This document shows, piece after piece, positions 58,904-64,000 of a DNA stretch of 64,000 nt. The DNA comes from Pseudanabaena mucicola str. Chao 1806. Lineage in GTDB: Bacteria > Cyanobacteriota > Cyanobacteriia > Pseudanabaenales > Pseudanabaenaceae. Below the pieces are notes generated by a model. The model had not been told where the DNA came from, did not search any database, and worked only from the letters and a program-made list of their open reading frames with translations. The translations under genes were made by a program, and so were the position numbers. The stretch is from positions 2,900,001-2,964,000 of the forward strand of contig NZ_CP097329.1 in NCBI RefSeq assembly GCF_030323025.1. Reading direction: 5' to 3'. Numbering within the stretch: the first letter of the stretch is position 1; every line of letters begins with the position of its first letter.

Positions 58904-59443
58904 ATGACACAAACTGCTACCGCCTCGGTTATTACCCCTTTACGACCAGTCAGCAAAGATGGATTAGAAGCTCTTGCGGCTAAAGCTAAGTCCAATCCTA
59001 ATGTAATTGGCACATTAAAAGTTAAAACCGTCTGCGAAGGTCAATTCCGCAACCTTACCTACGTTCGTAATTTGCCAGAGCATGTAATTGACGAGCCACC
59101 AACTTTGCTTGGACAGGACACGGCTCCGAATCCTTCCGAAGCTTTACTTGCTTGTCTTGGCTCTTGCCTATCCGTTGGGATTCATGCCAATGCAATTATG
59201 CGCGGTATTACTCTTTCTAAGCTAGAGTTGCATTTAGAAGGAGATATTAATATCACTGGTGTTTGGGGAATTGGTGATCTCTCCGAAAAGCGTCTTGGCT
59301 TCAGTGCTGTGCGCGTTAAAGTCGATATTGAGTCTGATGCAACCATAGAGCAGTTAGCAGAACTTCTAGAACATGCTAATTACTGGTCGCCAGTAGCCAA
59401 TACTTTCCGTAATCCCGTTGATATGCAAGTTTCCCTCGCATAG
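58904..59443 (+). CDS. OsmC/Ohr family protein
   Basis: 179 residues. LLGQDTAPNPSEALLACLGS and CLSVGIHANAIMRGITLSKL contain the first catalytic Cys in the SCL context. The second Cys normally found later in Ohr/OsmC (as in CP-) is absent; the C-terminal part reads HANYWSPVANTFRNPV, where SPV stands where CPV is expected. This is therefore an OsmC-like protein with one cysteine, perhaps not a hydroperoxidase. Such single-Cys forms are often linked to sulfur or organic peroxide metabolism. The following acyl-CoA-dehydrogenase gene is 137 bases downstream. Confidence 0.85.
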   Translation: MTQTATASVITPLRPVSKDGLEALAAKAKSNPNVIGTLKVKTVCEGQFRNLTYVRNLPEHVIDEPPTLLGQDTAPNPSEALLACLGSCLSVGIHANAIMRGITLSKLELHLEGDINITGVWGIGDLSEKRLGFSAVRVKVDIESDATIEQLAELLEHANYWSPVANTFRNPVDMQVSLA

Positions 59444-59580: not shown

Positions 59581-60720
59581 ATGCAAGCTAGTGAAATAAG
59601 TTGCAAAACTTCTCCATCAGAAATGCTTACTGATGGAATGTTAATGCAGAGTCTCAAACAGGCGATCGCCCAAAAATTAGCGCCTCAAGTTAGCCAGATC
59701 GATTTGCAAGGTGTTTACCCTGAAGAATTTTTGCGGCATATTGGCGGATTAGGTGCATACGCTCAGTGCGTAGCACAGAAATATGGCGGTACTGGTAGTG
59801 GGGTATTACCTGCCTTAAAGTCGATCGAAATGGTTTCCGCAACTTGCTTAAGTACAGGATTTATGACTTGGTGTCACAATGCCTGTGCTTGGTACTTACA
59901 AAATAGTGATAATCCATTTTTAAAAGAACAAATTTTACCACAGGTCGCTAGGGGGGAATTTCTATCGGGAACAGGGCTTTCTAACCCGATGAAACACTTT
60001 GCTGGTATTGAGAAAATTAAAATTATCGCCACTCCCTGCAAAGGTGGCTACATTCTTAATGGCACTTTGCCTTGGGTTTCTAATATTGGCGATCAACATC
60101 TATTTGGCATATCCGCTCAAATAGAAGGAACCGATGACTATCTCATGGCGATCGCCCAAGGGGGAATGCAGGGTTTAGAACTGAAGCAAGATGTGCATTT
60201 TATAGCTTTAGAAGGAACTAATACCTTTAGGTGTTTATTTCGCAATGCGTTCATTAGCCACGATTGGATTTTAGCTTCACCCTGTGATCACTATGTAGAA
60301 TATATCAAACCAGGATTTATCTTAATGCAGGTGGGTATGGGTCTGGGCTTGGCTCAGAACTGTATTGAGCTAATGCGGAGAATTGATAAGAGTAAAGCTC
60401 ATGTGAATCAATTCCTTGACGATCGCCCTGAAGAATTAGAAAGTGAATTGGAAACCCTGCGCCTCAAATCCTATCGTTTGGCTGAGGCGATCGGGCATGG
60501 TCAGCAGCTAGTCAGCAAGGAGATTTTGCGCGAAGTCGTGGAGGCAAGGGCTACCGCGTCAGAGTTATCATTACGAGCTTCGCAATCTTTAATGCTCCAT
60601 GCTGGGGCGATCGCCTATGTTCATGGCAGTGTGTATGAGCGCAGATTACGCGAGTCTTATTTTGTGGCAATGGTAACACCAGCCCTCAAACATTTACGCA
60701 AAGTCTTAGCATCAATGTAG
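59581..60720 (+). CDS. Acyl-CoA-dehydrogenase-like flavoprotein
   Basis: 379 residues. It has the fold of acyl-CoA dehydrogenases: IGGLGAYAQCVAQKYGGTGS, FLSGTGLSNPMKHFAGIEKI (FAD-binding), GGYILNGTLPWVSNIG, then the C-terminal four-helix bundle (QVGMGLGLAQNCIELMRRID, ASELSLRASQSLMLHAGAIA). The usual catalytic Glu is not evident. Members near transport genes of the NrtA/SsuA type include DszC- and SfnB-like monooxygenases for organosulfur compounds, a possible role here. A small hairpin (TTTGATGTTGC, TTATT, GCAACGTCAAA) lies in its leader. The ABC operon follows about 790 bases later. Confidence 0.82.
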   Translation: MQASEISCKTSPSEMLTDGMLMQSLKQAIAQKLAPQVSQIDLQGVYPEEFLRHIGGLGAYAQCVAQKYGGTGSGVLPALKSIEMVSATCLSTGFMTWCHNACAWYLQNSDNPFLKEQILPQVARGEFLSGTGLSNPMKHFAGIEKIKIIATPCKGGYILNGTLPWVSNIGDQHLFGISAQIEGTDDYLMAIAQGGMQGLELKQDVHFIALEGTNTFRCLFRNAFISHDWILASPCDHYVEYIKPGFILMQVGMGLGLAQNCIELMRRIDKSKAHVNQFLDDRPEELESELETLRLKSYRLAEAIGHGQQLVSKEILREVVEARATASELSLRASQSLMLHAGAIAYVHGSVYERRLRESYFVAMVTPALKHLRKVLASM

Positions 60721-61383: not shown

Positions 61384-61426
61384 GTATATGACTATACCGA
61401 TTATATACTCCTTAAATTGTTACAGT
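61384..61426 (+). promoter_or_regulatory. NtcA-activated promoter
   Basis: GTA-TATGACTA-TAC at 61384-61397 is an exact match to the NtcA consensus GTA-N8-TAC. It is followed after 23 bases by TACAGT at 61421-61426, an exact TA-N3-T -10 box. This spacing (site centred near -41) is that of class II NtcA-activated promoters of nitrogen genes in cyanobacteria. Transcription would begin about 75 bases before the ATG at 61509. Confidence 0.8.
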
Positions 61427-61508
61427 AATTAAAGCTAAGTTTTTATTATTTGTCATCACTCTCAATATCTCAATAACTATTCATTAATCAACTTAGGTAT
61501 AATCACCA

Positions 61509-61781
61509 ATGACATCTACGTTAATGGAACAGATAGTCGCTTCGGCGGTAGGAAATAATCAACTTGGCAGCGATAACTACGTTTATTCTAGTACCAAAAT
61601 ATGCACTTCTAATTTGCCAAGTGCTTGCCCTTGTGGCAGGTTCCATAACATTGATGAACATCAAAGAGTTATGGAAGGAATGCCAGAAGATCCTGCGGAA
61701 CTAATTAGTGATCTCATAAGGATGGGACATTATTCTGATCGTGCTCAATTGTTGGCGCAGTCTTGGAAACCAATGCAATGA
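61509..61781 (+). CDS. Small protein preceding the ABC binding protein
   Basis: 90 residues, MTSTLMEQIVASAVGNNQLG at the start. The middle has SACPCGRFHNIDEHQRVMEG, with two Cys and two His (CPC-G-x-x-H, and an EH) that could bind a metal. The end is helical (DPAELISDLIRMGHYSDRAQ). No family is recognised. The stop codon overlaps the ATG of the next gene as ATGA, so the two are translated together. The NtcA promoter ahead drives both. It could be a chaperone, regulator or metal-binding accessory of the transport system. Confidence 0.7.
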   Translation: MTSTLMEQIVASAVGNNQLGSDNYVYSSTKICTSNLPSACPCGRFHNIDEHQRVMEGMPEDPAELISDLIRMGHYSDRAQLLAQSWKPMQ

Positions 61782-63178
61782 AAGCTGACCTCTGGCAACT
61801 CTTAGAGCAGGGCGCATTTGCTAACGCCACCGAAAGTCAAAAGCGGATCTGCTATGACCTGATCAAAATGGCGGGTGGTGTTGAAGAAGCATTTAGTGCA
61901 GCATTTGGACCTCAAGCACAGGAATTCTTCACCGATGCCATTCAGTCTAGTACTTTCCGTCGTCGCGAATTTTTGATTAAAGTGGCTGCTGCTGCTGCTG
62001 TAGTCACCCTCACAGGTTGCCCTTCTTCTCCACCTCCTGAAACTCCTTCTAAAGCACCAACCACCAATACGCCTAATCCTCCTGCAGCAAATATCGAGAA
62101 AGCCAACCTTAAGGTTGGCTTTTTGCCAATTACCTGTGCTACACCGATTATTATGTCGGAACCATTGGGATTCTATTCCAAATATGGCTTAAAGGTGGAA
62201 TTGGTTAAGATGCCTAGTTGGGCAGCAGTTCGGGATTCGGCGATCGCTGGTGAATTGGATGCTTACCATATGCTCTCACCGATGCCCATCTCGATGTCTT
62301 TAGGCTTAGGTTCCACTGCTTTTCCTGTCAAATTAGCCAGTATTGAGAACATCAATGGACAAGCAATCGCTGTAGCCAAGCAACATCTAGGTAAGGTAAA
62401 GGAGGCAAAGGACTTTAAAGGCTTTAGTATTGGAGTCCCCTTCGCCTACTCCATGCACAACTTGCTCCTACGCTACTATCTTGCTGCGGGTGGCTTAAAC
62501 CCTGATAAGGATGTCCAAATTCAGGTAATTCCGCCGCCAGATGCGATCGCCAAAATGACCGCAGGGCAGCTAGATGCATTTCTACTGCCAGACAACGTTG
62601 CTCAGCGAGCCGTTTTCAACAAGATTGGCTTTATCCATCTGTTAACCAAAGATCTCTGGGCTGGACATCCTTGCTGCGCCTTTGCCGCTAACCAAAAATG
62701 GATTGATACCAACCCCAACACCTATCGCGCTATTAATAAAGCGATTATTGATGGTGCAGGCTATGCCAATAGTCCGAAAAATCGTGAAGAAATTGCCAAG
62801 GCGATCGCAGGTAAAAACTATCTCAATCAACCTGAACCTGTATTGAAAGCTGTTCTCACAGGCAAGTTTGAAGACGGACAAGGCAATACTCTTGATATTC
62901 CTGATCGTGTTGGTTTTGATCCCTATCCTTGGAAGAGTTTCGCAAAATGGATTTCTTCTCAGTTTGTACGCTGGGAACTCATGCCTAAGGACAAGGCAGA
63001 TTACAAATCTATTGCCGAACAAATCTATCAAACTGATTTGGCTCGCGAATTAGCGAAGGAGCTAGGTCAATCTCCCGCCACTGAAACCGAGCGTATTGAG
63101 AAACTCAAATTTGATACTTTCGATCCAGCCAAACCCGAAGCCTATATCGAAGAGCAGATCAAACAGTTTAAGGTCTAA
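61778..63178 (+). CDS. NrtA/SsuA-type ABC solute-binding protein with long pre-Tat region
   Basis: 466 residues from the ATG at 61778. A 60-residue soluble-looking segment (WQLLEQGAFANATESQKRIC) precedes FRRREFLIKVAAAAAVVTLT and GC, a Tat signal with a lipobox Cys81. No start codon lies between it and the RRR motif except at residue 31. After a Pro-rich linker the binding domain reads LKVGFLPITCATPIIMSEPL, PSWAAVRDSAIAGELDAYHM, SIGVPFAYSMHNLLLRYYLA and HPCCAFAANQKWIDTNPNTY, as in the NrtA/CmpA branch (nitrate, bicarbonate) and its relatives. NtcA control suggests a nitrogen compound; the actual ligand is unknown. Confidence 0.9.
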   Translation: MKADLWQLLEQGAFANATESQKRICYDLIKMAGGVEEAFSAAFGPQAQEFFTDAIQSSTFRRREFLIKVAAAAAVVTLTGCPSSPPPETPSKAPTTNTPNPPAANIEKANLKVGFLPITCATPIIMSEPLGFYSKYGLKVELVKMPSWAAVRDSAIAGELDAYHMLSPMPISMSLGLGSTAFPVKLASIENINGQAIAVAKQHLGKVKEAKDFKGFSIGVPFAYSMHNLLLRYYLAAGGLNPDKDVQIQVIPPPDAIAKMTAGQLDAFLLPDNVAQRAVFNKIGFIHLLTKDLWAGHPCCAFAANQKWIDTNPNTYRAINKAIIDGAGYANSPKNREEIAKAIAGKNYLNQPEPVLKAVLTGKFEDGQGNTLDIPDRVGFDPYPWKSFAKWISSQFVRWELMPKDKADYKSIAEQIYQTDLARELAKELGQSPATETERIEKLKFDTFDPAKPEAYIEEQIKQFKV

Positions 63179-63219
63179 ATCTAAAAAATATGTGCTTATA
63201 GCTGTAACTCAGCCATACC

Positions 63220-63252
63220 AACTTCAGAAATGGCGTAGCCATTTCTGAAGTT
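63220..63252 (+). terminator. Hairpin between binding protein and permease genes
   Basis: AACTTCAGAAATGGC, GTA and the exact complement, followed by AAAAACC. It has no T-run, so it is more likely an RNA-stability or attenuation element than a full stop. Confidence 0.5.
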
Positions 63253-63328
63253 AAAAACCTGACTGGGTTTGGGATGACAAGCTTTTTGGTTAATATAACA
63301 ACATTTTTAGAGAACCTTTAGAGAACCG

Positions 63329-64000
63329 ATGAGCTATTTTTCTTCAATACCAAAATCAAAACCACGCGCTAATCCGATCATGGCAGCAATTCAGCGTGTG
63401 CTACCTACCCACGATTATCAAGCTTTTGCGCTCTTTTTATTGATCCTAGCCACGATCTTAATCTTCTGGGAATATGGTGCGACTTCAGGATGGTTTTCTC
63501 CATTGATGCCATCCGCTAAAAGTACTTTCACGGATTTTTGGAGCTGGGTTTCTAAGCCATTTTATGTCAAGGGAACCAATGATAAAGGCATTGGTTGGCA
63601 TCTTATTACTAGTCTGCGCCGTGTGGCGATCGGCTTTAGTGTGGGTGCAGCGATCGCCATTCCTTCAGGAATTGTTATCGGTCTATTTCCCGTTGCATCC
63701 AAAGCCTTCGATCCCTTTATCCAAATTCTCAAACCCGTCTCACCCCTAGCTTGGCTGCCAATTGGCTTAGGGCTACTTCAAGATTCGGAAAGTACCGCCA
63801 TATTCGTAATTGCGATTACGAGTCTCTGGCCAACACTGATTAATACTAAATTCGGTGTCAGTAGCGTTGACCCAACTTATTTGGAAGTAACCCGCACCCT
63901 TGGCGCTTCGCAATGGCGGACAATTACCAAGGTCATCCTCCCTGCGGCAGCTCCGAGCATTGTCGCAGGAATGCGAATCAGTGCAGGGATTGCTTGGCTC
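63329..64000 (+). CDS. ABC transporter permease, NrtB/SsuC type (runs off right edge)
   Basis: The first 224 codons from the ATG at 63329. A hydrophobic helix (AFALFLLILATILIFWEYGA) starts the membrane part. SLRRVAIGFSVGAAIAIPSG, FDPFIQILKPVSPLAWLPIG and FVIAITSLWPTLINTKFGV are permease helices, and EVTRTLGASQWRTITKVILP then AAAPSIVAGMRIS is the EAA loop that contacts the ATPase. The protein is nearly complete; only the last helices lie outside. It works with the preceding binding protein, and an ATPase gene is expected just to the right. Confidence 0.94.
   Translation, partial: MSYFSSIPKSKPRANPIMAAIQRVLPTHDYQAFALFLLILATILIFWEYGATSGWFSPLMPSAKSTFTDFWSWVSKPFYVKGTNDKGIGWHLITSLRRVAIGFSVGAAIAIPSGIVIGLFPVASKAFDPFIQILKPVSPLAWLPIGLGLLQDSESTAIFVIAITSLWPTLINTKFGVSSVDPTYLEVTRTLGASQWRTITKVILPAAAPSIVAGMRISAGIAWL

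What the first reader, a model, noticed from the sequence alone, without database searches (positions are those of the whole stretch)
61384..64000. NtcA-driven uptake operon with a new small Cys/His protein
Seen: exact GTA-N8-TAC, 23 bases, TACAGT; then a 90-residue protein with CPCGRFH and EH, coupled by ATGA to an NrtA-type binding protein and a permease. Known: NtcA activates nitrogen uptake genes with this promoter layout. Inference: a nitrogen transporter, not necessarily nitrate, with a dedicated small accessory protein.
Basis: partly seen in the sequence, partly recalled or inferred. Interest (0 to 1): 0.65.

Follow-up and report, generated by a model that had tools for sequence, protein, structure and literature searches.

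The report
Split cyanate-uptake gene with unnamed domain
The supposed new small protein is the front end of a cyanate-uptake gene that a one-base loss has split in this cyanobacterium; that front end is a conserved but so far unnamed protein domain in its intact relatives.

Summary
The promoter motif, the 90-residue CPCGRFH frame, the ATGA overlap and the NrtA-type protein are all there. The reading 'operon with a new small accessory protein' is not right. The 90-aa and 466-aa frames are two pieces of one gene, cynA, the binding protein of the cyanate ABC transporter. In 386 sampled genomes of the phylum, 29 of 30 CynA copies are one frame of 531-595 residues with the Cys/His stretch at the front; only the window's is split. 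A genome of the same species, 99.8% identical, has the gene whole; the window lacks one base of a short G run. Just past the window an insertion sequence cuts off the end of cynB, before cynD and cynS (cyanase). ABC-type cyanate uptake is probably lost in this strain. The NtcA-type promoter holds up: GTA-N8-TAC in 34 of 75 cynA upstream regions, 3.4 expected. What remains of interest is the front domain: about 110 conserved residues with a Cys/Cys/His/His set before a Tat/lipoprotein signal, with no family match found. It should stay in the cytoplasm and be cut off on export; its role is not known.

The parts
61384..61397 (+). GTA-N8-TAC, NtcA-type operator
   Evidence: conserved before cynA in 34 of 75 loci against 3.44 expected
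61421..61426 (+). TACAGT, -10-like hexamer 23 bases after the operator
   Evidence: box plus hexamer in 19 of 75 loci against 0.42 expected
61509..61781 (+). 5' fragment of cynA (the '90-residue protein'): variable N-tail and first half of the N-terminal domain, with CPCGRFHNIDEH
   Evidence: fused to the binding protein in 26 of 27 loci read and in the same-species genome
61763..61768 (+). place of the one-base deletion that splits cynA
   Evidence: alignment with the same-species genome
61778..63178 (+). 3' fragment of cynA: second half of the N-terminal domain, Tat/lipoprotein signal, substrate-binding domain; frame open from a TTG at 61763
   Evidence: NMT1_2 E 2.2e-73
61958..62020 (+). 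RRREF...TLTGC, internal Tat-type signal with lipobox
   Evidence: read from the sequence; RR motif in 80 of 80 loci
62093..63175 (+). cyanate-type substrate-binding domain
   Evidence: 61-91% identical CynA in 28 other genomes of 386 searched
63329..64000 (+). cynB, permease; runs off the window and is cut after 256 residues by a 1256-bp insertion sequence just outside it
   Evidence: 285 residues in the same-species genome

Best explanation
This is a cyanobacterial cynABDS operon (cyanate ABC transporter and cyanase) behind an NtcA-type promoter, in a Pseudanabaena genome where two of its genes are broken. A one-base deletion splits cynA into the 90-aa and 466-aa frames, and an insertion sequence removes the end of cynB. 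In intact relatives CynA is one protein: variable N-tail; a helical N-terminal domain of about 110 residues with a Cys/Cys/His/His set; a Tat-type lipoprotein signal; the binding domain. Likely mechanism: at low nitrogen NtcA switches the operon on; CynA folds in the cytoplasm and leaves by Tat; signal peptidase II cuts at the lipobox, so that the lipid-anchored binding protein ends up outside and the N-terminal domain stays inside on the signal helix; CynB and CynD import cyanate and CynS turns it into ammonium and CO2. The N-terminal domain most likely holds or checks CynA before export (about 40%), or else acts as a cytosolic regulator of uptake (about 20%). In the window strain the ATGA overlap may let ribosomes restart and make a binding protein with half the domain, but the cut permease probably stops uptake. 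Shown: gene identity by sequence, the split, the insertion, conservation and purifying selection of the domain. Inferred: NtcA control, export route, topology, cleavage, role of the domain, loss of uptake.
For: The Cys/His stretch and the binding protein are one frame in 26 of 27 homologous loci read. CynA copies and the domain coincide: 30 CynA copies in 29 of 386 genomes, each with the domain; the one further genome with the domain is the broken remnant G289. A same-species genome aligned over 5,509 columns with 9 mismatches and one gap, at the split, and has one 556-aa frame. The run is longer in 10 of 11 genus loci (L125 was not matched by my pattern). Control: of 14 indels in 58,574 aligned bases, the only uncompensated one inside a window frame of 90 aa or more is this one. 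The insertion sequence in cynB is absent from the same-species genome and has 15 full copies in the window's genome. Cyanase follows, and cynS lies near cynA in 11 of 14 other neighbourhoods. Domain pN/pS is 0.105 in 8 genus sequences. Promoter footprint.
Against: The same-species genome is, it seems, a metagenome assembly, and no reads were seen, so the deletion could be an assembly error. The indel control counts only frames still at least 90 aa long in the window; a gene broken more badly would be missed. 41 of 75 cynA upstream regions lack the exact operator. The substrate is inferred from the gene neighbourhood; no binding or uptake data. Three of 14 other neighbourhoods lack cynS (a contig end, a remnant, a second copy). 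Cleavage and topology rest on motifs only; three loci (L010, L111, L112) lack the lipobox cysteine.
Confidence: 0.88

Rival explanations
1. The missing base is a sequencing or assembly error; cynA is whole in the organism and only cynB is broken.
For: One base in a short G run is a common kind of error; the relatives are whole; no reads were available.
Against: It is the only uncompensated indel in a frame of 90 aa or more in 58,574 aligned bases, and a second, unrelated lesion sits in the same operon. Even if true, the small protein is not a separate gene.
Confidence: 0.2
2. The split is functional: the 90-aa protein works as a free accessory subunit, coupled by ATGA to a shortened binding protein.
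For: Clean ATGA overlap; the Cys/His motif is unchanged in the small frame.
Against: No other split copy among 30 CynA copies; the cut falls inside the conserved domain; cynB is broken as well.
Confidence: 0.04
3. It is a transporter for another substrate (nitrate, nitrite, sulfonate) that happens to lie near cyanase.
For: NrtA and CmpA are the nearest solved relatives; PMC6627978 states that the S. elongatus cyanate transporter also carries nitrite (passage seen).
Against: cynB, cynD and cynS follow in order in the genus and beyond; the ATPase has no NrtA-like extra domain; NrtA/CmpA-type paralogues in the genus are only about 35% identical.
Confidence: 0.06
4. Programmed frameshifting joins the two frames.
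For: The two frames overlap for several codons.
Against: Relatives are in one frame and need no shift.
Confidence: 0.02

Closest known systems
cyanobacterial cynABDS cyanate uptake operon (S. elongatus PCC 7942; original papers seen only as references in PMC6627978 and PMC4973221)
   Same: Same gene set and order by sequence; cyanase domain; listed as an NtcA target in a table of PMC13421787 (passage seen)
   Different: cynA frameshifted, cynB cut by an insertion sequence. Whether the S. elongatus CynA has the N-terminal domain was not tested here; no paper found mentions the domain
NrtA and CmpA, binding proteins for nitrate and bicarbonate
   Same: Homologous binding domain (PDB 2g29, 2i48); Tat-type start in paralogues of the genus is recalled, not tested
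   Different: Their similarity to CynA starts near the signal or after it; the N-terminal domain has no counterpart in the matches
NrtC and CmpC ATPases with a NrtA-like regulatory domain
   Same: Also put an extra domain on an uptake system of this superfamily (8w9m, 682 aa)
   Different: Here the ATPase CynD is 292 aa with only ABC_tran; the extra domain is on the binding protein and is unrelated by sequence
compact Cys/His metal-binding motifs such as zinc knuckles (recalled)
   Same: Four closely spaced possible ligands, C-x1-2-C-x3-H-x3-5-H in 82 of 88 rows
   Different: No convincing Pfam, NCBIfam or PDB match; metal binding untested

Membership tests
cynABDS cyanate uptake operon | NMT1_2-type binding protein, permease, ATPase and cyanase in one direction | tested here: met
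   two of the four genes are damaged
cynABDS cyanate uptake operon | high-affinity cyanate transport | not testable with these tools
   needs uptake or binding assays
NtcA regulon | GTA-N8-TAC about 22-23 bases before a -10 hexamer, conserved before orthologues | tested here: met
   exact operator in 34 of 75 orthologous regions
NtcA regulon | NtcA-dependent, ammonium-repressed transcription | not testable with these tools
   needs expression data in this strain
separate small accessory protein of a transporter | own gene, conserved as a free-standing ORF | tested here: not met
   fused in 29 of 30 CynA copies in 386 genomes, split only in the window
NrtABCD nitrate transporter | NrtC-type ATPase with a NrtA-like C-terminal domain | tested here: not met
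   the operon's ATPase is 292 aa with ABC_tran only
Tat-exported lipoprotein | RR-x-F motif, hydrophobic stretch, lipobox cysteine | tested here: met
   RR motif in 80 of 80 loci. Lipobox in 106 of 110 loci: 101 by pattern and 5 that the pattern missed, read by eye; three lack it and one is broken. Some genomes occur twice among the 110
Tat-exported lipoprotein | export and cleavage | not testable with these tools
   needs fractionation or tagging
metal-binding Cys/His domain | four ligands that bind metal | tested here: inconclusive
   motif conserved, with a Cys-for-His change in four picocyanobacterial rows; no metal data; fold search gave nothing usable

The most novel reading that the evidence does not exclude
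CynA of cyanobacteria carries an undescribed cytosolic Cys/His domain in front of its export signal. Each export event leaves this domain inside the cell on the signal helix, where it binds metal and reports or limits cyanate uptake, for instance by touching the ATPase CynD or PII; it would do for cyanate uptake what the extra domain of NrtC/CmpC is thought to do for nitrate and bicarbonate.
Probability: 0.2. Interest if true: 0.65.

Novelty: new variant of a known kind. Interest (0 to 1): 0.35.

Why it matters
The operon in the window is a known kind, damaged, so the headline claim falls. The by-product is a conserved domain without a family entry in the libraries searched, on the cytoplasmic side of an export signal in a nitrogen-uptake protein of freshwater and marine cyanobacteria, small-genome picocyanobacteria included. 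If it regulates, it would give a handle on how cyanate uptake is tuned to nitrogen supply. It also shows that a frameshift with an ATGA overlap can pass for a coupled new gene.

Tried and rejected
Considered and rejected: nitrate transporter (no NrtC-type ATPase in the operon, cyanase present); guanidine transporter (a recalled idea, dropped when cyanase was found; Rfam at gathering score gave only a tmRNA in nine loci); a natural two-gene arrangement; a generally noisy assembly.

Led nowhere: family and PDB sequence searches with the domain (best E-values 0.026 in Pfam, 0.0051 in NCBIfam over 88 members, 0.89 in the PDB). The domain model has modest confidence (88 sequences, mean pLDDT 75.7, pTM 0.43); Foldseek's best E was 8.1 and VIA-align gave one row (Z 2.3, rmsd 8.1, 73 aligned), so nothing follows about its fold. 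The full-length model left the N-terminal 190 residues at block means of 64 or less. Literature: eight searches of an open-licence library listed no paper on the domain; I saw listings, and passages of seven papers, and read no paper whole. Kamennaya and Post 2011 is not held.

Rows dropped: the domain alignment A3 has 88 rows from 111 candidate loci. Five were not extracted (L007 broken; L123 and L157 run off their contigs; L136 has the motif but missed my pattern; L155 has an internal deletion) and 18 were removed as over 95% identical to another. Extraction asked for C-x1-2-C, so counts of the two cysteines lean upward. Three rows (L154, L188, L191) come from a second copy in the locus. One search left out 5 of 80 loci. 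One search listed the best 80 of 178 relatives. One search used aligned pieces of 1,000 bases or more.

Full report
The NtcA-type box (61384-61397), the 23-base gap and TACAGT (61421-61426), the 90-aa frame with CPCGRFH and EH (61509-61781), the ATGA overlap and the NMT1_2 binding protein (61778-63178) are as described. The box alone is weak evidence, since the window holds 17 copies of GTA-N8-TAC against 8.26 expected.

The small frame is a gene fragment. The 90-aa protein matched 27 of 386 genomes of the phylum, at 28 places; 26 of the 28 lie in one open frame of 531-595 residues, the other two being the window (92) and G289 (127). Reading 27 loci gave 26 fused proteins; the 27th, G289, is a remnant with frameshifts and without the other cyn genes nearby. 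A profile of the domain found it in 30 of 386 genomes. The binding domain, at E 1e-90 or better, found 30 CynA copies in 29 of 386 genomes. Compared genome by genome, each of these 30 copies has the domain, and the one extra genome with the domain is G289. The window's copy is the only one of the 30 that is split.

The cause is a one-base deletion. Its cynA is one 556-aa frame. In 10 of 11 loci of the genus the run has the longer length; in L125 my pattern found no match. As a control for a noisy assembly I aligned 58,574 bases of the window to the same-species genome: of 14 indels, three lie in window frames of 90 aa or more, namely a mutually compensating pair in one frame and the cynA deletion. 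The control cannot see genes too broken to leave 90 aa. An assembly error at this one place remains possible, because no reads were available.

A second lesion lies just past the window edge. The permease frame ends after 256 residues, where a 1256-bp insertion sequence with a DDE transposase sits; the same-species genome has an uninterrupted 285-aa cynB. The element has 15 full copies, shown as 100% identical, among 25 matches in the genome, so it has probably been moving recently. Downstream, cynD and cynS are open, with ABC_tran and cyanase domains; the genome has one match to the cyanase family. Two independent lesions in one operon suggest that ABC-type cyanate uptake has been lost. That is inference, since uptake was not measured.

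The promoter claim gains support. In 75 cynA upstream regions (420 bases before the first Cys codon; 5 of 80 loci too short), 34 have GTA-N8-TAC against 3.44 expected, and 19 have the box plus a -10-like hexamer against 0.42; 41 of 75 lack the exact box. The loci are related, so these numbers overstate independence. In print, a table of PMC13421787 lists cynABDS as an NtcA target (passage seen), and PMC4973221 reports the S. elongatus cyn genes rising in nitrogen starvation (passages seen).

The N-terminal domain is the part worth keeping. It lies before an internal RR-x-F signal: the motif is in 80 of 80 loci. A lipobox cysteine is found in 106 of 110 loci (101 by pattern, 5 missed by the pattern and read), is absent from L010, L111 and L112, and G289 is broken; some genomes occur twice among the 110. 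The domain is translated and under selection: in 8 sequences of the genus (28 pairs) pN/pS is 0.515 for the tail before it, 0.105 for the domain, 0.214 for signal and linker and 0.057 for the binding domain. Of 88 rows, 82 have C-x1-2-C-x3-H-x3-5-H, 4 picocyanobacterial rows have C-x-C-x2-C-x6-H, and 2 are other variants (selection of rows). A Cys in place of a His is what a metal site would allow, but metal binding is not shown. No convincing family or structure match was found. NrtA/CmpA-like paralogues and solved relatives align mostly from near the signal onward. With a Tat signal in the middle, the domain should stay in the cytoplasm and be cut from the exported protein. A role in holding CynA before export, or in regulating uptake, is inference; PMC6603209 says that PII is likely involved in control of the S. 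elongatus cyanate transporter (passage seen).

Noticed in passing
window 58904-59443 (OsmC-like) and 59581-60720 (acyl-CoA dehydrogenase-like); L029:11885-12523 (TetR); L126, L132, L148, L156, L188, L192: An OsmC-like gene, an acyl-CoA-dehydrogenase-like gene and a TetR gene lie near cynA well beyond the genus; the dehydrogenase-like gene is within the fetched stretch in 24 of 80 loci. A link to cyanate or a related compound is possible but untested.
   Followed up: partly
L156, L176, L188, L191, L192: Two CynA-like genes, both with the N-terminal domain, lie close together with a PAS-type and a response-regulator-like gene (named by eye) between them; the first follows the dehydrogenase-like gene, the second precedes cynB.
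   Followed up: partly
L146, L163, L169, L170, L180, L190: CynA-like genes with the N-terminal domain but without cynB, cynD or cynS above my cut-offs in the fetched stretch.
   Followed up: no
L085 (G289) and L155: G289 keeps a frameshifted cynA remnant without the other cyn genes nearby; L155 has a shortened N-terminal domain with an internal deletion.
   Followed up: partly
L029:9097-10352 (just past the window's end): A 1256-bp insertion sequence with a DDE transposase and 15 full copies in the genome, absent at this site in the same-species genome.
   Followed up: partly
window, whole: GTA-N8-TAC occurs 17 times against 8.26 expected; 1 of 100 shuffles reached that. The other sites were not examined.
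   Followed up: no
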